Assembly (NCBI RefSeq): GCF_030143245.1 | Contig: NZ_JARJNS010000003.1 | Coordinates: forward strand, 496,001-560,000 | DNA: 64,000 nucleotides | Origin: Rhabdaerophilum sp. SD176 | GTDB lineage: Bacteria; Pseudomonadota; Alphaproteobacteria; Rhizobiales; Beijerinckiaceae | Reading direction: 5' to 3' | Part shown: positions 7,226 through 49,620 of the stretch, piece by piece | Layout of the letters: the number at the start of each line of letters is the position of its first letter | Position numbering within the stretch: the stretch's first letter is position 1 | The notes under the pieces: model-generated | Told to the model about the DNA's origin: nothing | Database searches by the model: none | The model's input: the letters and a program-made list of their open reading frames with translations, nothing else | Translations under genes and position numbers: made by a program

Positions 7226-8578
7226 ATGCAGACAAGACGCGGACTTCTGAAGACCGGCGCTGCGGCCGCCTTCACCACGGCACTCTGGCCCTCGGCCGGC
7301 AGCGCCAATCCCTATGCGCGGTTCAAGGGCACCAGCCTTGTGGTGAATTTCCCCGCGCATCCGCATTTCGACGCGGTCACGAAGATCCTGCCGCAATTCA
7401 CCGCCGAAACCGGCATCAAGGTCGAGGTGGATACGCTCCAGTATCTCCGCATGCGCGACAAGCAGCTGCTGGAGATGTCGAAACCCGGCAAGGGTGATTA
7501 CGACCTCCTGGCCTATGTCGTGTTCTGGAAATCCGAATACGCCAACAAGGGCTTGATCCGCGAAGTCGGGCCGATGTTCAAGGATGCCGCGCTCGCCGTG
7601 CCGGATTACGATTTTGGTGATCTCATCCCCGGCTATGTCGAGAATATCGGGCTGGTCGGGGGCCGGAAGGGCTATCTCGCTGGCCCCTCGGCGAAGCTGA
7701 TCGGCATGCCGTTCGGTGCCGAAACCTCGGCTCTGGCCTACCGGGCCGATCTCTTCGCCCAGAACGGCTGGAAAGTGCCGGAGACCTATGCCCAGCTCGA
7801 ACCGCTGCTCGCGCGCATTCCCGAAACGATGAAGGGCATGGGCGCGCTCGCCTCGCGCGGGCAGACAGGGCATCAGGTTGTCCATGCCTGGCTCCTGCAC
7901 ATGGCGCCGATGGGCGGCCGCATCTTCGATGACCAGTGGCAGCCGACCTTCAACAATGCCGCCGGCATCCGCTCGGCAAGCCTGCTGAAGAAGATCATCG
8001 AGACCGGCCCGGCCGGCGGTGCCGCTTTCGGCTTTGACGAGATGAAGAACGCCTTCATGCAGGGCAATGCCGCGATGTTCCTCGATTCCATCGCTGTGGC
8101 GGGGGAAATGAACGATCCGGCGAAATCCAAGGTCGCCGGCAAGGTGGCCTGGGCCTATCACCCCGAGGATATCCGGCGCGGCTCGCAGACCGGTGGCTTC
8201 GGCATCGCCATTCCGAGGAATGCCGCCAATGGCGAGGCGGCCTTCATGTTGATGCAGTGGCTGACCTCGAAAAAGGCGGACCGGCTGATCGCGGCGGCGG
8301 GGGGCTCGCCCTCGCGCTTCTCGACCTATAACGATCTCGAACTCCAGCAGAAGTTCAAGCACTACGTGACCTTCGCCACCGCGCTCAAACATGCCGATCC
8401 CGACTGGCGGCCGATCATCAACGAATGGAACGAACTCAATGCGCCCGTCTTCGGCGTGGCTTTGGGCGAGATCGTGACCGGCAAGAAGGATCCGAAACAG
8501 GCGCTGGACGATATCGTGCCCAAGGTCCGCGCCATCATGGAGAAGGGTGGCTATTACGGTCCCAATGCGCCGAAATAG
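7226..8578 (+). CDS. Extracellular sugar-binding protein, ABC transporter (family 1)
   Basis: This 450-residue protein begins with a twin-arginine-like signal (MQTRRGLLKTGAAAAFTTAL, cleaved near AGSA) and is a family 1 extracellular solute-binding protein: FKGTSLVVNFPAHPHFDAV starts the first lobe, and GMPFGAETSALAYRADLF is the usual hinge strand. The segment FMQGNAAMFLDS in lobe two is typical of sugar-binding members. It delivers substrate in the periplasm to the following permeases. Substrate is unknown; the GntR-like regulator and lactonase in the operon point to a sugar that passes through an aldonolactone, or to a sugar acid. Confidence 0.88.
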   Translation: MQTRRGLLKTGAAAAFTTALWPSAGSANPYARFKGTSLVVNFPAHPHFDAVTKILPQFTAETGIKVEVDTLQYLRMRDKQLLEMSKPGKGDYDLLAYVVFWKSEYANKGLIREVGPMFKDAALAVPDYDFGDLIPGYVENIGLVGGRKGYLAGPSAKLIGMPFGAETSALAYRADLFAQNGWKVPETYAQLEPLLARIPETMKGMGALASRGQTGHQVVHAWLLHMAPMGGRIFDDQWQPTFNNAAGIRSASLLKKIIETGPAGGAAFGFDEMKNAFMQGNAAMFLDSIAVAGEMNDPAKSKVAGKVAWAYHPEDIRRGSQTGGFGIAIPRNAANGEAAFMLMQWLTSKKADRLIAAAGGSPSRFSTYNDLELQQKFKHYVTFATALKHADPDWRPIINEWNELNAPVFGVALGEIVTGKKDPKQALDDIVPKVRAIMEKGGYYGPNAPK

Positions 8579-8591
8579 CCCGGCTTCCTCC

Positions 8592-8614
8592 GGGGCGCCT
8601 GCGTCGGGCGCCCC
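8592..8614 (+). promoter_or_regulatory. Intercistronic GC-rich hairpin after the binding-protein gene
   Basis: GGGGCGCC (8592-8599) pairs perfectly with GGCGCCCC (8607-8614) around a 7-base loop. No U-tract follows. It sits 13 bp after the binding-protein stop and 79 bp before the first permease. Such hairpins usually stabilise the upstream message or reduce read-through, so more binding protein than permease is made. Confidence 0.6.
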
Positions 8615-8693
8615 AGCCTGAGGGAGGTGTCGGCTGTGCCGGCTGAAACCGGGCCCTGCCGGGCCTCCCTCGTTTCTCTTGCGGGATCGAACC

Positions 8694-9590
8694 ATGCCGA
8701 GCCGTCACGGCCTCAACCGCGCCTCGCCCTATTTCTTCCTCGCTCCGGCCGCGGCCGTGGCGTTGGTCGGGCTCGTCTATCCGATGCTGCGTTCGGTCTG
8801 GCTGTCCTTCCACGAATGGTCGATCGGCACTCCGCCGGAATCGGCACGCTTCGTCGGGCTCGAGAATTACCGCTGGCTGCTCGCCGATGATTCCTTCTGG
8901 ATCTCGGTCGGCGTGTCCATGGCCTTTGCCGTGGCCGTGGTGATCCTGGAAGTGGTGCTCGGCGTCGCGCTCGCGCTTGTTCTTGACCGGGACCTGCGTG
9001 GCACCAGCCTGTTCCGCACGATCTTCATCCTGCCGATGATGATCGCCCCGATCGTCGTCGGGCTGATCTGGCGTTTTCTCTACAACGAGCAGTTCGGCCC
9101 GCTGAGCCAGGCTCTCAAGGCGCTCGGCCTGCCCGGCATTCCCTGGCTTTCCTCGCCCGACATGGCCCTGATCTCGGTGATCATCGCCGATGTCTGGCAA
9201 TGGACGCCCTTCATCTTCATCCTTGCGCTGGCTGCGTTGCAGGGGCTGCCCGCCTCCGCTATCGAGGCCGCGCGGATCGACGGCGCCACGCGCTGGCAGA
9301 CAACGCTCTACATCAAGCTGCCGCTCATCGCCCCGGTCATCGCGGTGGCGGCTTTGCTGCGGCTGATCGACGCCTTCAAGGTGCTGGAGGTCATCTACAT
9401 CCTCACCGAGGGTGGCCCCGGGCTCTCCACCGAGATCCTGTCCCTTCACATCTACAAGACAGCCTTCGTGAGCCAGCAGCTCGGCCGGGCCTCGGCCCTG
9501 TCGAACCTGCTCCTGCTGATCGTCCTGATGCTGACCTTGCTGCTCGTGCTGGCCCGCAGCCTGCGCGAACGCCGCGCCGGGAAGGAGTGA
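8694..9590 (+). CDS. Sugar ABC transporter permease (MalF-like)
   Basis: This 298-residue membrane protein has six predicted segments. The ASPYFFLAPAAAVALVGLVYPM opening is typical of MalF/UgpA-type permeases. The EAA loop that docks on the ATPase is IEAARIDGATRWQTTLYIKLPLI. I chose the ATG at 8694; a TTG at 8679 would add five residues. It forms the membrane pore with the permease at 9596. Confidence 0.92.
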   Translation: MPSRHGLNRASPYFFLAPAAAVALVGLVYPMLRSVWLSFHEWSIGTPPESARFVGLENYRWLLADDSFWISVGVSMAFAVAVVILEVVLGVALALVLDRDLRGTSLFRTIFILPMMIAPIVVGLIWRFLYNEQFGPLSQALKALGLPGIPWLSSPDMALISVIIADVWQWTPFIFILALAALQGLPASAIEAARIDGATRWQTTLYIKLPLIAPVIAVAALLRLIDAFKVLEVIYILTEGGPGLSTEILSLHIYKTAFVSQQLGRASALSNLLLLIVLMLTLLLVLARSLRERRAGKE

Positions 9591-9595
9591 CCCCC

Positions 9596-10432
9596 ATGTC
9601 CGGCACCGCCACGACCCGCCGCGCCACGCCGTTCTCCTATGCCGTGATCATCCTCCTCGCGATGCTCTCGCTCGGGCCGATCCTCGTCATGATCGCCACC
9701 TCGCTGAAAACCAAGCCGGAGATCTTCTCGGGCAGTTTCAGCCTCATTTTCATGCCGACGCTGGAAAATTACCGGGCCGTGCTCGGCGACAGCCAGAATG
9801 CGCGCTACCTTACCAATTCGCTGATCGTCGCCACGGTCTCGACCTTCCTGACGCTCGTTTTCGGCTGCATGGCCGCCTATGCGATCGTGCGGTTCCGCTT
9901 CTTCGGGCGCGATGTCGTCTCGGGCGGCACCCTGCTGATGCGGATGGTCCCGCCAGCGGTGCTGACCGTGCCGGTCTTCATGATCTGGACCTACGAATTC
10001 GGGCTTTCCAATTCGCTCTCGGGCGTGATCCTCGTCTACACCGCGATCAACCTGCCTTTTGTGATCTGGATCCTCCAGAGCTTCATCGCGCAGGTGCCGC
10101 CGGCCCTTGAGGAGGCCGCCCGGATCGACGGGGCGAACGATTTCCAGGTCTTCTTCCTCGTCGTCCTGCCGATGATCAAGCCCGGCCTCGCGGCGGCGGC
10201 GATCTTCACCTTCCGCATCGCCTGGAACGAGTTCATCCTGGCGCTGGTCCTGACCAACCGGTTCACCCGTACCATGCCGGTGAAGGTCTCGCTCTTCATC
10301 AACGAGCACAACATCGAATGGGGGCAGATCATGGCGATCGGCACCTTGATCGCCGTGCCGCCGCTGGTTTTCACGTTCCTTGCCTCGCGCCAGATCATCA
10401 CCGGCATGACGGCCGGCGCGGTGAAGGGCTGA
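9596..10432 (+). CDS. Sugar ABC transporter permease (MalG-like)
   Basis: This 278-residue permease has six membrane segments. The SLKTKPEIF element after the first helix is typical of MalG/UgpE-type subunits, and the EAA loop is LEEAARIDGANDFQVFFLVVLPMI. It starts 5 bp after the partner permease gene, with GGAGTGA upstream, so translation is likely coupled. It is followed after 3 bp by the b561-like gene, showing that all six genes belong to one operon. Confidence 0.92.
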   Translation: MSGTATTRRATPFSYAVIILLAMLSLGPILVMIATSLKTKPEIFSGSFSLIFMPTLENYRAVLGDSQNARYLTNSLIVATVSTFLTLVFGCMAAYAIVRFRFFGRDVVSGGTLLMRMVPPAVLTVPVFMIWTYEFGLSNSLSGVILVYTAINLPFVIWILQSFIAQVPPALEEAARIDGANDFQVFFLVVLPMIKPGLAAAAIFTFRIAWNEFILALVLTNRFTRTMPVKVSLFINEHNIEWGQIMAIGTLIAVPPLVFTFLASRQIITGMTAGAVKG

Positions 10433-10435
10433 GCG

Positions 10436-11158
10436 ATGGATTTCTGGCTCGCCCCGCTCGATCCGGCCCGGCCGCATCTCGTCGATGCCGCCATCGCCTG
10501 GCATGCGCGGCTGATGGTGCTGGCCTGGGCCATCCTGCTCCCCCTCGGCGTGATCCTCGCCCGCTTCTACAAGATCACGCCACGGCAGGACTGGCCCTCC
10601 CGCTGCGACAACCGCTTCTGGTGGATCGGCCATCTCGTGCTGCAATATGCCGGGGGCCTTGCCATGCTGGGCGGGCTTGCCATGCTGCTGGCCGGGCCGG
10701 GGCTGAAGGGCCCGGGCCATCTCCATGCTTTGGCCGGCTGGTCCGTCCTTGCCTTCGGCGGCGCGCAGTTCCTTGGCGGTTGGCTGCGCGGCTCAAGGGG
10801 CGGCCCGGGCGAGCCCTCCTTGCGCGGCGACCATTACGACATGACGCCCCGGCGCATCCTGTTCGAGTGGCTGCACAAGTCACTTGGCTATATCGCGCTG
10901 GCCCTTGCGGTGCTCGCCATTCTCACCGGATTATGGCTTGCCAATGCCCCCCGCTGGATGCCAGCTTTGCTCGGATTCTGGTGGGCGCTCTGGCTCTTCC
11001 TCTTCATCCGGATGCAGCGGCAGGGCAGGGCGGTCGATACCTATCAGGCCATCTGGGGCCCGTCGCCCCACCATCCCGGCAATGCCCGAAAGCCGATCGG
11101 CTGGGGCATCCGCCGGCCGGGCGGGGAAGGCCGCGAGGAAACAAGGGGAAGCCGGTGA
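10436..11158 (+). CDS. Cytochrome b561-like membrane protein
   Basis: This 240-residue protein has five to six predicted membrane segments and four histidines placed as in the cytochrome b561 domain: His23 (AIAWHARLM), His66 (IGHLVLQY), His97 (GHLHALAGW) and His147 (EWLHKSLGY). In the b561 family such histidines ligate two haems across the membrane and pass electrons from ascorbate or quinol. It lies 3 bp after a sugar permease and overlaps the lactonase gene by 4 bp. That is an odd place for an electron carrier; it may serve a sugar dehydrogenase encoded elsewhere. The C-terminus is hydrophilic and arginine-rich. Confidence 0.75.
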   Translation: MDFWLAPLDPARPHLVDAAIAWHARLMVLAWAILLPLGVILARFYKITPRQDWPSRCDNRFWWIGHLVLQYAGGLAMLGGLAMLLAGPGLKGPGHLHALAGWSVLAFGGAQFLGGWLRGSRGGPGEPSLRGDHYDMTPRRILFEWLHKSLGYIALALAVLAILTGLWLANAPRWMPALLGFWWALWLFLFIRMQRQGRAVDTYQAIWGPSPHHPGNARKPIGWGIRRPGGEGREETRGSR

Positions 11159-45249: not shown

Positions 45250-47679
45250 ATGACACCGGCTCGCCCTGCTGCCCGAAACGCTGTCGCCGCTTTGATCATC
45301 GGACTTGTTCTCGCGCCGGCCCCTTCTTTCGCTGCTGATGCCAACCTTGCCGCAGAACTGGCGGCGCTCAAGACAAGCCTCAACCATGTCTGGGTCATCA
45401 CGGCGGCTGCGCTGGTCCTGCTGATGCAATGCGGCTTCCTGATGCTTGAAGCCGGCATGGTCCGCTCCAAGAACACCATCAACGTCGCCCAGAAGAACGT
45501 GATCGATTTCTTCGTCTCGGCTTTCTGCTTCGCATTGTTCGGCTTTATGCTGATGTTCGGCCCCTCCATCGGCGGCCTGTTCGGCATGCCCGGCCCGATC
45601 TGGTCCTTCGAGGGTCTGGATGACTGGGGCCAGACCTATTTCGTCTTCCAGGTCGCCTTTGCCGGCACCGCTGCCACCATCGTTTCGGGCGCCGTGGCCG
45701 AACGCATGAGCTATGGCGCCTATATCATGCTGGCCGCCCTGGTCGGCCTTGTCATCTATCCGGTCTTCGGCCACTGGGCCTGGGGGGTGGGCCTCATCAC
45801 CGACAACAAGCCCTGGCTGGCCGCGCAAGGCTTTATCGATTTTGCCGGCTCCACCGTGGTCCATTCGGTCGGCGCCTGGATCGCGCTGGCCGGCATCATC
45901 ATGCTCGGCCCGCGCATCGGCCGGTTCGATTCGAACGGCAAGCCGATGCCCATCCATGGCCATTCCCATGTGCTGACGGCGTTCGGGGCCATGCTGCTGC
46001 TGGTCGGCTGGCTCGGCTTCAATGCCGGCTCCACCGTGGCCGCCAGCGGCGCCATCGGCAAGATCGCCGCGAACACCCTGCTGGCTGCGGCCGCCGGCGG
46101 TATCGTCGCCGTGCTGATCGGGCGCTTCCGTGACCGCTGCTACCAGACCAATCGCCTGATCAACGGCCTGCTCGCCGGCCTTGTCGGCATCACCGCCGGC
46201 TGCGACGCCGTCGGCCTGAAGGGCGCCGTCGCGATCGGTCTCATTTGCGGTGCGATGGTGGTCTATGTCGAGGATTTCGTGCTCAACCAGCTCAAGCTCG
46301 ACGATGTCGCCGGCGTTCTCGGCGTGCATGGTGTTGCCGGTGCAGTCGGCACGCTGCTGGTGCCGTTCTTCGCCCTGTCGGGCAAACTGGGCGACCTCAC
46401 CGTGATGGGTTCCTTCCTCGTCCAGTTGAAGGGCGTCTCCGCCGCCTTCATTTGGGCCTTTGGCATGGGCCTCGCCGCGTTCTGGCTCATGAAGAAGACC
46501 ATCGGCATCCGGCTTTCCGCCGAGGATGAACTGCGTGGCCTGAACGTCGCCGAACACGGCGCCCAGATCGGCACTGGCGCCTTGCAGGAAGAACTCTACC
46601 GGATCACGCAGATCGACCGTGACCTGACCCGCCGGCTCGATGCGGGTTCGGGCGACGAGGCCGGCGAGATCGCCAAGATCATCAACCCCTTCCTCGATGA
46701 ATTCCACCGCCTCCAGGCGCAGATCGCGCGGGATGCCGGCCGGATCGCCCAGGCCTCGGGCTCGCTCAAGGGCCTGTCCGAGCGCTTCCGTGGTGATTCC
46801 GAAACGCTTGACCGTGAGACTGCGGAAGTCGGGCGCTCGACACAGGACCTGCAGGGCCGTTCGCGCCAGAGCGCCGGTCAGGCCGAGGACCTGCGCGATG
46901 ATGCCGGCCGCGTCGCCGAGGCGGCGATGGGCATGAGCGAGACGATCAACGAACTCGCCCGCCAGATCGGCGCCCTCTCCGGCTCGGTGCTGGATGTCGG
47001 GGAATCCGCCCGCCGGGGCCGGGAAGTCTCCCATTCCGCGAGCGAGCTGGTTGGCCGCTCCGAGCAGCAGATGTCGAGCCTTGTTGTAGCCAGCGACCAG
47101 ATCAACGCCATCGCCGACCTGATCGACGATATCGCGAGCAAGACCAACCTGCTGGCCCTCAATGCCACGATCGAGGCCGCCCGCGCCGGCGAGGCGGGGC
47201 GCGGCTTCGCCGTCGTCGCCACCGAGGTCAAGGCGCTGGCGCTCCAGACCCAGCGCGCGACCATGGAGGTCAAGGCCCGCGTGGCTGCCCTGCGCAGCGG
47301 CACGGCAGAAGCCAGCCAGAGCTTCGAGGCTCTCCGCGCGGTGCTCGCCGATATCGGCGGCATCATCACGACCATCGCCGACGCCTCCGAAAGCCAGGCG
47401 CGCGTGGCCGGCTCGGTCCATGGTGCGGTGGAGGATGTATCCGGCCGCGTCAGCGTGGTGGCGCAATCGGTTGGCCGCATGTCAGGTGATGTCGTCCACC
47501 TCGCGACCTATATGAGCGATGTCGACCAGGCGATCTCCACCACCGGGCATGTCGTCGGCCAGATCCGCCAGACCGTTGGCGAGAATGTCCGGTCGGCGCA
47601 GGAACTCGACCAGCGCGCCGGCGACCTGACCGCCATCTCGGCCACGCTCCAGCAATCGGCGAAACGCTACAAGGTCTGA
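45250..47679 (+). CDS. Ammonium channel (Amt) fused to a methyl-accepting chemotaxis signalling domain
   Basis: This 809-residue protein joins two normally separate modules. Residues 1-29 look like a signal peptide (ends APSFAAD). Residues about 40-415 form a complete Amt channel: [20 protein letters not shown], twin pore histidines His205 ([11 protein letters not shown]) and His360 ([10 protein letters not shown]), and GWLGFNAGS. Residues about 455-485 ([20 protein letters not shown]) look like the second half of a HAMP domain. The rest is a chemoreceptor coiled-coil hairpin with the tip [31 protein letters not shown] (about residues 630-665). No NWETF tether is present. It should sense ammonium and signal to CheA/CheW. 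The ATG at 45250 is preferred over TTG 45232. No che or glnK gene is nearby. Confidence 0.92.
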
Positions 47680-47980: not shown

Positions 47981-48369
47981 TCACGCCCGGATCGAGTTCT
48001 CCCTGAGGAAGGCCTCGTATCCAGCTTCGTCAAGCTCGCCGGCAGCAAGGGCCATCACGGCAGAGGCCGCAGCTTCCTCGCTCGCCTCAAACCGGAACCC
48101 GTTGAGCTCGAGGAAAAGCACGCCGATGACGAACCCGATGCGCTTGTTGCCATCCACAAACGGGCGGTTTCGGACAATCCCGAACGAGAGAGCGGCTGCA
48201 AGCCGCACGATATCGGCCTCTGGTTCATACCCGGCGATCTGACGCGGCCGGGCCAGGGCCGGGTCAAGAAGCGCCGCATCGCGGACACCCTTGGCCCCGC
48301 CATGGAGTTGAAGCGTCGTTCATGAATCATCAGGGCCAGGGTGCGATCGATAAAGACCCGCTCGCTCAT
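47981..48369 (-). pseudogene. doc: Doc/Fic-type toxin, frameshifted
   Basis: The gene starts normally (MSERVFIDRTLALMIHER at 48369) and, after a single missing base near 48310-48318, continues in another frame with LQLHGGAKGVRDAALLD, RQIAGYEPEADIVRLAAAL, the Fic/Doc active-site motif RPFVDGNKRIGFVIG and ends NSIRA. Adding one base restores a normal 129-residue Doc toxin, which phosphorylates EF-Tu. The catalytic motif (HxFx(D/N)GNKR) has Arg-Pro in place of the usual His-Pro-F context (NRPFVDGNKR). The start overlaps the upstream antitoxin by 4 bp. Loss of the toxin frame could be selected, or a sequencing error. Confidence 0.75.
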
Positions 48370-48599
48370 TTCGCAAGGGTGTGGAGCGTATTGCGGTACC
48401 GGCGCATGATCGCCTCGGCTTTCTCCATCTTCTCGGCGAAGCCCGGGTCATTGTGCGTGAGATGCAACCCGCCCTCCGCCGTCTCTACTGCGTAGAGTGT
48501 ATCGCCCTTGGCAATATTTAGCCTGGCCAGCATCTCCTTGGGGATGACGACGCCGGTCGCGGTGCCGATCGTTGTGAGTTTCAAGACGGCCACGGCCAT
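48366..48599 (-). CDS. AbrB/MazE-type antitoxin partner of Doc
   Basis: This 77-residue protein has the swapped-hairpin AbrB fold: KLTTIGTATGVVIPKEMLARLNIAKGDTLYAVET, then an acidic C-terminal tail that would neutralise the toxin. Antitoxins of this type are commonly paired with Doc in alphaproteobacteria instead of Phd. It overlaps the doc pseudogene by 4 bp. It still reads intact although the toxin is broken. The ATG at 48599 is chosen over upstream starts that are not conserved. Confidence 0.85.
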   Translation of the reverse strand: MAVAVLKLTTIGTATGVVIPKEMLARLNIAKGDTLYAVETAEGGLHLTHNDPGFAEKMEKAEAIMRRYRNTLHTLAK

Positions 48600-48756
48600 G
48601 CTCCGATTGTTATGCCAATCAGAATGAAAAGGCTCACGAAGCGTCAATCGGCGTGACAAGGCTGACAGATGTGGGGCGGGGCAACTCAGGGCTCCGTCCA
48701 CTTAGAGCGGGATTGCGGAATGGATGAAAGGGCAACCTCATGAGAATGCGCTGTCG

Positions 48757-49158
48757 TCAGGCTGGGGAAATCAGGCTGACCTTCGGGAAGGATGAACGAT
48801 ACCGCTGAGGATCGCGGGTCAACAGACCTATCCCCGACACAGCGGCATGCGCGCCGATGAAAAAGTCTGGCAGGACTCCCGCTCGGCTCCCACTTTGCCG
48901 GCGGTATTGCTGGAACGCCTTCCCCGCGAGGAAGAGTGCTTCGCGGGGGATCTCCGCCCAGCCGATATCCACGTCCTTCAGGAGGCGCTCGATATCCTCG
49001 ATCCGGTCATAGCCGACCGAGAATTCCGAATAGATCACCGCATTGATGACCACAGGACCACGCATCGCCGCCGCGTCCAGGTGTTCGATGGACCAGCCTG
49101 CCCAGTTCGGATCATTGGTTGCGATGTCCAGCAGCACATTGGTATCGATGAGGATCAA
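48757..49158 (-). CDS. vapC: PIN-domain toxin VapC
   Basis: This 133-residue PIN-domain ribonuclease has the acidic tetrad of VapC: Asp5 in ILIDTNVLLDI, Glu in IYSEFSVGY, Asp in GVLPDFFIGAHA and Asp in LLTRDPQRY. VapC cuts a tRNA or rRNA when its antitoxin is lost. Its start overlaps the antitoxin stop by 4 bp. All catalytic residues are present, so it looks functional, unlike the neighbouring toxin remains. Confidence 0.92.
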   Translation of the reverse strand: MILIDTNVLLDIATNDPNWAGWSIEHLDAAAMRGPVVINAVIYSEFSVGYDRIEDIERLLKDVDIGWAEIPREALFLAGKAFQQYRRQSGSRAGVLPDFFIGAHAAVSGIGLLTRDPQRYRSSFPKVSLISPA

Positions 49159-49394
49159 GCAGCGTCGCCCCGCGTCAGCGCCATGATTTCATCCGTGCTG
49201 AGGCGTGTTGTGGCTGTTCCACGGAGGTGCTCGAAGCGACTGGTCAGCGGTCGCTCGGCACCCTCGGCCAGGATGAAGGCGCGACCATCCTTGTCGAGAC
49301 TGAAGGCCACTCTCGTCCCCGGTTTGATGCCGAGCCGATCCCGGATGGGCTTGGGGATGGTCACTTGTCCCTTGCTGGTAACAGTAGTGGGCAT
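49155..49394 (-). CDS. vapB: AbrB-type antitoxin VapB
   Basis: This 79-residue antitoxin starts MPTTVTSKGQVTIPKPIRDRLGIKPG, the typical AbrB/SpoVT N-terminus, and has an acidic, toxin-binding C-terminus (STDEIMALTRGD). It autoregulates the pair. The frame stays open upstream without a stop into an RHS-like remnant, so the upstream DNA was probably replaced or inserted close to the promoter. Confidence 0.9.
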   Translation of the reverse strand: MPTTVTSKGQVTIPKPIRDRLGIKPGTRVAFSLDKDGRAFILAEGAERPLTSRFEHLRGTATTRLSTDEIMALTRGDAA

Positions 49395-49434
49395 GGCGAT
49401 CCTCGTAATACCTTCTTGATTTTGAGTATTACAT

Positions 49435-49620
49435 ACCATGGTGTTCGTCGGCGTGCCAACCCATCCGTTACCAATGCCGGTCGCCATCAGGATGTTGCCA
49501 TCGATCGAAGTGGTAAAGCTCTGGCTCAAAGTCCGCGTTCGAGGTGTTCGTGGCCGTCGTCAGCCGGTCGAGCTCGTCATAGGCGTAGATTTCATGCCAC
49601 TTGAGAATCCCATGCCGATT
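49435..49620 (-). pseudogene. RHS/YD-repeat protein fragment, frameshifted
   Basis: On the minus strand the segment reads KWHEIYAYDELDRLTTATN followed by TSNADF, the YD-repeat pattern of RHS/wall-associated toxins (YxYDxLDRLTxATN). A frameshift follows, and the other frame continues SQSFTTSIDGNILMATGIGN, matching the next YD-repeat unit (QSFTYDxxGNI). There is no rest of the gene. It is a small remnant of a polymorphic toxin, next to the start of vapB. Confidence 0.55.

What the first reader, a model, noticed from the sequence alone, without database searches (positions are those of the whole stretch)
45250..47679. Ammonium channel fused to a chemoreceptor signalling domain
One 809-residue protein holds a complete Amt channel with both pore histidines (His205, His360), a HAMP-like linker and a full chemoreceptor tip. 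Known Amt fusions that I can name carry a histidine kinase or a GGDEF/EAL domain. I know of no characterised Amt-chemoreceptor. This would be a direct ammonium chemotaxis receptor, or a channel whose transport state is read by CheA. The retained pore histidines suggest that it transports, and is not only a sensor.
Basis: partly seen in the sequence, partly recalled or inferred. Interest (0 to 1): 0.78.

Follow-up and report, generated by a model that had tools for sequence, protein, structure and literature searches.

The report
Ammonium-channel chemotaxis receptor
This bacterial gene joins an ammonium-channel protein to the signalling rod of a chemotaxis receptor and most likely lets the cell steer by ammonium; relatives are scattered through many bacterial groups, and I found no laboratory study of one.

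Summary
Window 45250-47679 encodes one 809-residue protein: an Amt domain (residues 47-438), a HAMP-like segment (441-485) and a chemoreceptor hairpin with a normal tip. It is no assembly join: 9 of 17 genomes of its genus, its own included, carry the fused gene, and 48 of the 80 best loci from an 84,980-species collection are Amt-MCP fusions.

Retained pore histidines do not show transport: Ks-Amt5, an Amt-histidine-kinase sensor, keeps them and does not efficiently transport (PMC5764959). The window protein keeps five of seven residues of Ks-Amt5's buried NH4+ pocket, plus one T-to-S change; six of the seven pocket columns are among the 27 (of 390) that separate fused sensors from AmtB transporters. 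The genome has a separate glnK-amtB pair and one che cluster. Two related Amt-MCPs lost both pore histidines yet keep most of the pocket. But unfused Amts can carry the pocket too.

Best reading: a dedicated ammonium chemoreceptor of the Ks-Amt5 sensor kind with an MCP output; a new variant of a known kind. How a threefold Amt drives twofold receptor dimers is open.

The parts
45250..47679 (+). Complete Amt-MCP gene, 809 aa plus stop
   Evidence: fused in 9 of 17 congeneric genomes, own included
45250..45336 (+). N-terminal hydrophobic helix (residues 1-29) that looks like a signal peptide
   Evidence: sequence; helix 5-21 in the model; function inferred
45388..46563 (+). Amt (ammonium transporter family) domain, residues 47-438
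   Evidence: Pfam PF00909 E 2.6e-102; best fold matches 6eu6 and 8qj3, TM-score by target 0.95 and 0.94
45427..45507 (+). Holds Q60, E67, N83, D86: equivalents of Ks-Amt5 Q24, E31, N47, D50 of the buried two-ion NH4+ pocket (helices 1 and 2)
45676..45687 (+). Holds T143 and S146: equivalents of Ks-Amt5 T109 and T112 of the same pocket (helix 4)
45862..45864 (+). Pore histidine H205 (Ks-Amt5 H171)
46327..46329 (+). Pore histidine H360 (Ks-Amt5 H326)
46570..46704 (+). HAMP-like segment, residues 441-485: helix 441-455, connector 456-469, helix from 470
   Evidence: weak Pfam HAMP in P0001, E <= 0.001 in 18 of 47 aligned sequences; model; 42-44 residues from invariant H436 to invariant N479 in 47 of 47
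46705..47664 (+). Chemoreceptor signalling hairpin, residues 486-805, turn at 646
   Evidence: PF00015 587-746; helices 539-645 and 647-805 in the model
47143..47193 (+). Hairpin tip, residues 632-648, expected to contact CheA/CheW
   Evidence: same motif as the genome's other receptors; contact role is established knowledge of MCPs

Best explanation
It is a dedicated ammonium chemoreceptor. External NH4+ enters the Amt vestibule and is captured in a buried, negatively charged pocket (Q60, E67, N83, D86, T143, S146) of the kind solved in Ks-Amt5, rather than being passed on for uptake. Binding shifts the Amt C-terminal region, which runs within a few residues into a HAMP-like segment and then into an MCP hairpin whose tip controls CheA. 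SHOWN (by computation or in print): fusion, fold, conserved pocket and tip, separate glnK-amtB pair, one che cluster, flagellin genes; and for the relative Ks-Amt5, binding without efficient transport and ammonium-dependent kinase phosphorylation. INFERRED: that this protein binds NH4+, that it transports little, that CheA reads it, and that the cell swims by ammonium. UNKNOWN: attractant or repellent sign, and how a trimeric Amt serves dimeric receptor rods; my guess is two Amt trimers sharing one receptor trimer of dimers.
For: Pocket: of 55 Amt-MCP rows, Q at the Q24 position in 52 (two K, one gap), E31 in 54 (one gap), N47 in 55, D50 in 55, T109 in 55, and S at T112 in 53; of 30 AmtB rows none has E31 or D50 (rows related). 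After thinning at 80% identity, 6 of the 7 pocket columns are among 27 sensor-specific columns of 390 (69 sensors, 15 AmtBs; hypergeometric P 4e-7, which ignores shared ancestry). [quoted passage not shown]). Uptake is covered elsewhere: a second Amt at C20:77500-78846 directly after a PII gene. Output: CheA, CheW, CheY-like, CheB and CheR in one cluster, which holds all three CheW-domain matches of the genome; two flagellin matches. HAMP-motif-to-tip spacing is 164 in P0001 and in 6 of 18 own-genome receptors examined, so co-assembly is sterically plausible. Two Amt-MCPs (L041, L061) have C and N at the two pore histidines and L for S227 but keep E, N, D and T109: the fusion can persist without a normal pore.
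Against: I found no binding, transport or motility data for any Amt-MCP. The pocket is not confined to sensors: five unfused Amts (L075, L076, L097, L099, L123) and one cut by its contig (L092) have Q, E, N and D too, and five unfused marine-type Amts have E31 and N47 but A and L at Q24 and D50. Of the three bulky pore-blocking residues of Ks-Amt5 only F27 is kept (F63); Y30 and F34 are L66 and M70, and pocket T51 is F87, so the pore may be less blocked. L041 and L061 have K in place of Q24. P0001 has no match to the strict methylation consensus as I recall it and, by eye, no C-terminal CheR-docking pentapeptide; its C-arm is longer (167 residues after E642 against 143-145 in 13 of 18 own receptors), so entry into a shared array is not certain. 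Of 18 own receptors, 9 gave no HAMP motif in the search, and L004 (165), L008 (246) and L019 (59) gave other spacings. None of the ten neighbouring genes scanned is a che or nitrogen gene.
Confidence: 0.7

Rival explanations
1. Transceptor: a working ammonium channel whose transport state, not mere occupancy of a pocket, is read by CheA.
For: Both pore histidines, Phe gate and selectivity residues are intact; two of three Ks-Amt5 plug positions hold smaller residues here (L66, M70); unfused Amts of the same clade also have the pocket.
Against: Ks-Amt5 keeps the same pore set and does not efficiently transport. The alternative pocket is conserved. A separate glnK-amtB pair serves uptake. Two related Amt-MCPs lost the histidine pair.
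Confidence: 0.2
2. An ordinary ammonium transporter with a chemoreceptor tail that only regulates or positions it; ammonium is not a chemotactic cue.
For: NCBI's amt model accepts P0001 as 'ammonium transporter' (355.3 bits over a cut-off of 343.3), and a Phaeobacter relative is annotated that way.
Against: In 47 of 47 aligned Amt-MCPs the H436-N479 spacing is 42-44 residues and the tip-region residues N638, G650 and F653 are kept; E642 is kept in 46 of 47. The same Amt type is joined to kinases and GGDEF/EAL outputs, the pattern of an input module.
Confidence: 0.07
3. A receptor whose ligand or output is something else: for example another cation, or a non-flagellar output of the che pathway.
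For: The pocket differs at T51 (F87); ligand untested. C-arm length differs from most other receptors of the genome.
Against: Six of seven pocket positions match or are conservative; Ks-Amt5 is selective for NH4+ over Na+, K+ and methylammonium; one che cluster was found, and flagellin genes elsewhere in the genome.
Confidence: 0.1
4. Assembly artefact, frameshift or decaying gene.
For: One relative (Gracilibacillus oryzae, L086) has its frame broken between Amt and hairpin, and 8 of 17 congeneric genomes gave no match.
Against: Fused frames without internal stops in 9 of 17 congeneric genomes and fused frames in 48 of 80 wider loci; GC3 is alike in both halves (0.83 and 0.85).
Confidence: 0.01

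Closest known systems
Ks-Amt5 of 'Candidatus Kuenenia stuttgartiensis' (PDB 6eu6; PMC5764959), Amt sensor histidine kinase
   Same: Amt domain (Foldseek 41% identity, TM-score by target 0.95), pore set, five of seven pocket residues identical and one T-to-S, C-terminal signalling fusion.
   Different: Output is a histidine kinase, not an MCP hairpin; its paper says it lacks a HAMP domain, whereas this protein has a HAMP-like segment; plug residues Y30 and F34 and pocket T51 differ.
Sd-Amt1 of Shewanella denitrificans (PDB 8qj3 'OFF-state', 8qj4 'ON-state', 8qpf; only titles and alignments seen)
   Same: Matches P0001 over residues 44-501 (E 5.4e-91); all seven pocket positions have the same letters as P0001, F at T51 included.
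   Different: Different plug residues (F and N at Y30 and F34); the match stops before the MCP domain. Its output domain was not examined and its paper was not read.
AmtB/GlnK-type ammonium transporters (E. coli AmtB; the genome's own C20 copy)
   Same: Fold, pore histidines, Phe gate, C-terminal region.
   Different: 25-28% identity to E. coli AmtB structures; 30 of 30 AmtB rows lack the E and D of the pocket; no signalling fusion.
Transmembrane chemoreceptors (MCPs), such as the 18 other receptors examined in this genome
   Same: HAMP-like segment, hairpin, tip motif; HAMP-motif-to-tip spacing identical to 6 of the 18.
   Different: Sensor is an 11-helix Amt, trimeric in known members, not a periplasmic ligand-binding domain on a dimer; longer C-arm than 13 of the 18.

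Membership tests
Amt/Mep/Rh family | Amt fold and PF00909 match | tested here: met
   E 2.6e-102; Foldseek to 6eu6, TM-score by target 0.95
AmtB-type ammonium transporter | Translocates ammonium | not testable with these tools
   Needs a transport assay; pore residues intact but they are intact in poorly transporting Ks-Amt5 too
AmtB-type ammonium transporter | Groups with AmtB sequences and is linked to glnK | tested here: not met
   A branch with 100% SH-aLRT parts five AmtB rows from P0001 and the other rows; the PII-linked copy is another gene
Ks-Amt5-type Amt sensor | Buried pocket Q24, E31, N47, D50, T51, T109, T112 | tested here: met
   Five identical, T112 to S, T51 to F, so six of seven; Sd-Amt1 has the same two differences
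Ks-Amt5-type Amt sensor | Bulky residues F27, Y30, F34 closing the pore | tested here: not met
   Only F27 kept; L66 and M70 at the other two
Ks-Amt5-type Amt sensor | Ammonium-dependent output activity | not testable with these tools
   No biochemical data
Methyl-accepting chemotaxis protein | MCPsignal domain with conserved hairpin tip | tested here: met
   PF00015 E 1.8e-28; tip like own-genome receptors
Methyl-accepting chemotaxis protein | HAMP transducer between membrane and hairpin | tested here: inconclusive
   Below Pfam cut-off in P0001, E <= 0.001 in 18 of 47 aligned sequences; HAMP-like helix-connector-helix in the model
Methyl-accepting chemotaxis protein | Methylation sites | tested here: inconclusive
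   No match to the strict consensus as I recall it; one loose match at residue 602
Methyl-accepting chemotaxis protein | Controls CheA; cognate pathway present | tested here: inconclusive
   One che cluster with CheA, CheW, CheY-like, CheB, CheR present; control of CheA itself not testable here

The most novel reading that the evidence does not exclude
Amt-MCPs are a widespread, unstudied class of bacterial ammonium receptors in which a channel fold has become a sensor, and the threefold symmetry of the Amt is married to the twofold receptor rods in a receptor-array unit not seen before (for example two Amt trimers sharing one trimer of dimers, or three rods from one Amt trimer each pairing with a neighbour). 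The same Amt input has been joined to MCP, kinase and c-di-GMP outputs more than once.
Probability: 0.3. Interest if true: 0.78.

Novelty: new variant of a known kind. Interest (0 to 1): 0.56.

Why it matters
My searches turned up no characterised bacterial receptor for ammonium chemotaxis. Of the 15 papers listed for that phrase, 7 name the alga Chlamydomonas in the title; one on Clostridium reports responses of a few species to ammonium salts, with the word receptor absent from its text (passages). This family offers a candidate with a predicted ion pocket, natural variants without the pore histidines, and relatives in named cultured strains (Phaeobacter, Tritonibacter, Roseibium, Metabacillus, Halobacillus), so that sensing and transport could be separated by experiment. 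It also poses a clean structural question: how a trimeric sensor drives dimeric signalling rods. NCBI's amt model names the window protein 'ammonium transporter', as a Phaeobacter record does for its relative, which could hide such proteins from surveys of receptors.

Tried and rejected
Assembly join or frameshift: rejected. Linked partner genes: in a comparison of flanking frames over 53 loci (window, L021-L069, L080, L177, L178) I looked at the 25 largest clusters; those shared with the window apart from the Amt-MCP gene and frames overlapping it were mostly confined to L021-L024 (its near relatives); I did not annotate most clusters, so a shared partner is not excluded (ten window neighbours annotated). 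Plasmids: 14 records match at E <= 1e-60, 3 cover at least 80% of the query. Receptor length class: arm counts suggest about 23 heptads per arm, but I had no class HMMs and the alignment to the solved MCP 2ch7 needed uneven gaps, so I assign no class. Number of fusion origins: the quick tree (118 rows; L021, L022, L024, L043, L045, L066, L092 and all but five AmtBs left out) needs at least 7 changes of the MCP label, 4 forced by starred branches, but 30 of 113 inner branches are open and several rows, Ks-Amt5 and Sd-Amt1 among them, sit on long branches; gain and loss cannot be told apart. A HAMP-motif count by regular expression found the motif in 35 of 49 MCP-class rows and in 0 of 20 kinase and GGDEF rows, though similar letters are visible by eye in the printed linkers of the latter. 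Literature: ten searches listed no paper that I recognised as being on an Amt-MCP; the library holds only CC-licensed papers. Passages only were seen of PMC10433425, PMC6978683, PMC8534201, PMC12918730 and PMC9689628; PMC8547431 holds none of four terms sought. The 2009 Tremblay and Hallenbeck review on Amt as a sensor was seen only as a citation.

Classification limits: MCP by an HMM I built from own-genome receptors, confirmed by Pfam for 46 of the 48 loci plus P0001 (L039 and L043 left out); kinase and GGDEF by regular expressions, with Pfam checks on a few. L082 was called HK by regex, but failed the stricter box test and Pfam found only Amt in it, cut by the contig end; it was still counted as HK. 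L077 was re-filed as GGDEF; Pfam confirms GGDEF and EAL.

Full report
WHAT IS THERE. The frame 45250-47679 on the + strand is open for 809 residues. Pfam finds an Amt domain at 47-438 (E 2.6e-102) and an MCP signalling domain at 587-746 (E 1.8e-28); a HAMP match at 454-481 is below the cut-off. An AlphaFold2 model from 47 aligned Amt-MCPs (mean pLDDT 83.6, pTM 0.61) shows the Amt fold, a helix at 441-455, a connector at 456-469, a helix from 470, and a hairpin that turns at 646; stretches 523-541 and 747-773, which lie opposite each other on the two arms, are predicted with low confidence. By Foldseek the closest solved structures are 6eu6 (titled 'Sensor Amt Protein') and 8qj3/8qj4 (titled 'Receptor Sd-Amt1', OFF-state and ON-state), ahead of E. 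coli AmtB.

IS IT REAL. A 300-residue query across the Amt-MCP junction finds one match, without internal stops and spanning the whole query, in each of 9 of 17 genomes of the genus, the window's own included. Near-identical fusions occur in four separate assemblies, L021-L024, at 91-97% identity. The fusion is not a sequencing or assembly error.

HOW COMMON IT IS. In a collection of 84,980 species genomes the query gave 325 relatives, of which the best 80 were kept. Of these 80, 48 are Amt-MCP by my receptor HMM, 10 look like Amt-kinase and 10 like Amt-GGDEF by regular expression, and 12 are none of these. Of the 12, three are cut by a contig end (L045, L066, L092), L077 is GGDEF-EAL by Pfam and L086 has an MCP tip in another frame; among the ten kinases L082 is unsafe. 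Pfam confirms both domains in 47 of 47 members of alignment A2, which holds P0001 and 46 of the 48. By record title the Amt-MCPs span Pseudomonadota (mostly Alphaproteobacteria), Spirochaetota, Bacillota, Thermodesulfobacteriota, Planctomycetota, Verrucomicrobiota, Myxococcota and Campylobacterota, plus SAR324; many are metagenome assemblies. It is patchy: in 149 genomes of the window's family I confirmed it in 3 (own, G117, G137), and two more have an Amt-GGDEF by regular expression. In 385 genomes of the class, 55 had a match at E <= 1e-60; of the 29 loci fetched beyond the own one, 4 are Amt-MCP, 23 look like Amt-kinase, one is unfused and one is cut. Matches without a fetched locus were not classified, so 5 of 385 genomes, own included, is a lower bound.

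WHY A SENSOR AND NOT SIMPLY A TRANSPORTER. Ks-Amt5 (PMC5764959; I read the abstract, sections 7 and 8, and found passages) binds NH4+ in a buried two-ion pocket, does not efficiently translocate it, and keeps the usual pore residues, both histidines included. The pocket is Q24, E31, N47, D50, T51, T109, T112. The window protein has Q60, E67, N83, D86, F87, T143, S146; Sd-Amt1 has the same seven letters. Among 55 Amt-MCP rows the positions are kept in 52, 54, 55 and 55 for Q, E, N, D, 55 for T109, and 53 have S at T112; 30 of 30 AmtB rows from relatives have Y at E31 and none has D at D50. Rows are related, so I thinned them at 80% identity: 69 sensors (39 MCP, 23 kinase, 7 GGDEF) and 15 AmtBs. 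Of 390 columns 27 are conserved in sensors (>=90%) and rare in AmtB (<=10%), and 6 of the 7 pocket columns are among the 27 (hypergeometric P 4e-7, which ignores shared ancestry).

AGAINST THIS. The pocket is not confined to fusions. Five unfused Amts of the clade (L075, L076, L097, L099, L123) and one cut row (L092) have Q, E, N and D too, and their function is unknown; L076 has a separate receptor-like gene about 1 kb downstream. Five unfused marine-type Amts have E31 and N47 but not Q24 or D50, so E31 alone says little. Of the three bulky residues that close the Ks-Amt5 pore only F27 is kept. Residual transport is possible.

A NATURAL TEST. Two Amt-MCPs from alphaproteobacterial metagenome assemblies, L041 and L061 (343 of 469 aligned positions identical to each other), have Cys and Asn at the two pore-histidine positions and Leu for the selectivity serine, but keep E31, N47, D50, T51 and T109 of the pocket; both have Lys for Q24. 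Their MCP halves match the receptor HMM as well as that of P0001. This suggests that the receptor role does not need the histidine pair; their own ligand is untested.

THE REST OF THE CELL. The genome has one other Amt, at C20:77500-78846, directly downstream of a PII gene at C20:77019-77336: the usual glnK-amtB uptake pair. All three CheW-domain matches lie in one cluster on C17 that encodes CheA (915 aa with Hpt, kinase, two CheW stretches and a receiver domain), CheW, a CheY-like protein, CheB and CheR. Two flagellin matches were found. Of ten neighbouring genes scanned, those next to the Amt-MCP gene are a Na/Ca exchanger, an Amdase-like protein and hydantoinase B and A upstream, and a PIN gene with a MazE-like gene downstream; none is a che or nitrogen gene. 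Among the 25 largest clusters of flanking frames over 53 loci, those shared with the window apart from the gene itself were mostly confined to L021-L024, but most clusters were not annotated.

GEOMETRY. The stretch from the invariant H436 to the invariant N479 is 42-44 residues in 47 of 47 Amt-MCPs, so the Amt C-terminal region is joined to the HAMP-like part in nearly fixed register. From N479 to tip residue E642 there are 163 residues in P0001; other members often differ by multiples of seven (156, 170, 142), though not always. The HAMP motif lies 164 residues before E642 both in P0001 and in 6 of the 18 own receptors examined; L004 has 165, L008 and L019 gave 246 and 59, and 9 gave no motif. 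The C-arm is longer than in 13 of the 18 (167 against 143-145). Known Amts are trimers (stated in PMC5764959) and MCPs are dimers in trimers of dimers (established knowledge). Two Amt trimers over one trimer of dimers would balance; this is inference. The Ks-Amt5 authors met the same puzzle and called kinase modules on a trimeric core unprecedented.

WHAT IS KNOWN. Ten searches of a library of open-licence papers listed no paper that I recognised as describing an Amt-MCP. The Ks-Amt5 paper notes that Amt modules joined to other domains 'were observed earlier', citing a 2009 review that I could not read, so the architecture itself may already be in print. NCBI's amt model accepts P0001 as 'ammonium transporter', and a Phaeobacter inhibens relative on a conjugative plasmid is annotated so. 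The kind (Amt sensor joined to a signalling output) is known; the MCP output appears uncharacterised. I therefore call it a new variant of a known kind.

VERDICT. Observation confirmed. Ammonium chemoreceptor: likely (0.7). Transport through it: undetermined, with the evidence leaning against. Interest 0.56: not rare, not unprecedented in kind, but an apparently unstudied class with a sharp prediction and natural variants.

Noticed in passing
L177:7941-10406 (Phaeobacter inhibens P88, plasmid pP88_b): An Amt-MCP relative (43% identity over 95% of the query) sits on a conjugative plasmid with recombinase and transposase genes nearby and is annotated 'ammonium transporter'; two Tritonibacter mobilis plasmid records carry a relative too.
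   Followed up: partly
L076:5941-7245 and 8254-10602: A Geminicoccaceae genome has an unfused Amt with the Q, E, N, D pocket and, about 1 kb downstream, a separate chemoreceptor-like gene: perhaps a split form of the same system.
   Followed up: partly
L041 and L061: Two Amt-MCPs lack both pore histidines and have other changes around the pore (for example W254 to A), yet keep E, N, D of the pocket.
   Followed up: partly
L042 and L043 (Azospirillum halopraeferens): Two contigs of one genome carry apparently identical Amt-MCP loci: a duplication or an assembly repeat.
   Followed up: no
L055, L058, L060, L065, L068: Amt-MCPs with short C-arms (62-92 residues after the tip glutamate) and clearly longer N-arms; L055 has a second HAMP-like match at 548-610.
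   Followed up: no
L012 (own genome, C22:132682-133623): A receptor gene with an in-frame TAG stop inside the matched stretch.
   Followed up: no
window 48760-49529, - strand: A PIN-domain gene preceded by a MazE-like antitoxin gene, and a further small frame at 48369-48701 with no Pfam match: a likely toxin-antitoxin pair just downstream of the Amt-MCP gene.
   Followed up: no
P0001 residues 523-541 and 747-773: Low-confidence stretches of the model lie at about the same height on both hairpin arms (about 101-127 residues from the turn), perhaps a flexible or irregular zone.
   Followed up: no
L095 (Vreelandella maris): Amt followed by PAS only, in a tree group whose other members continue into GGDEF: possibly truncated.
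   Followed up: no
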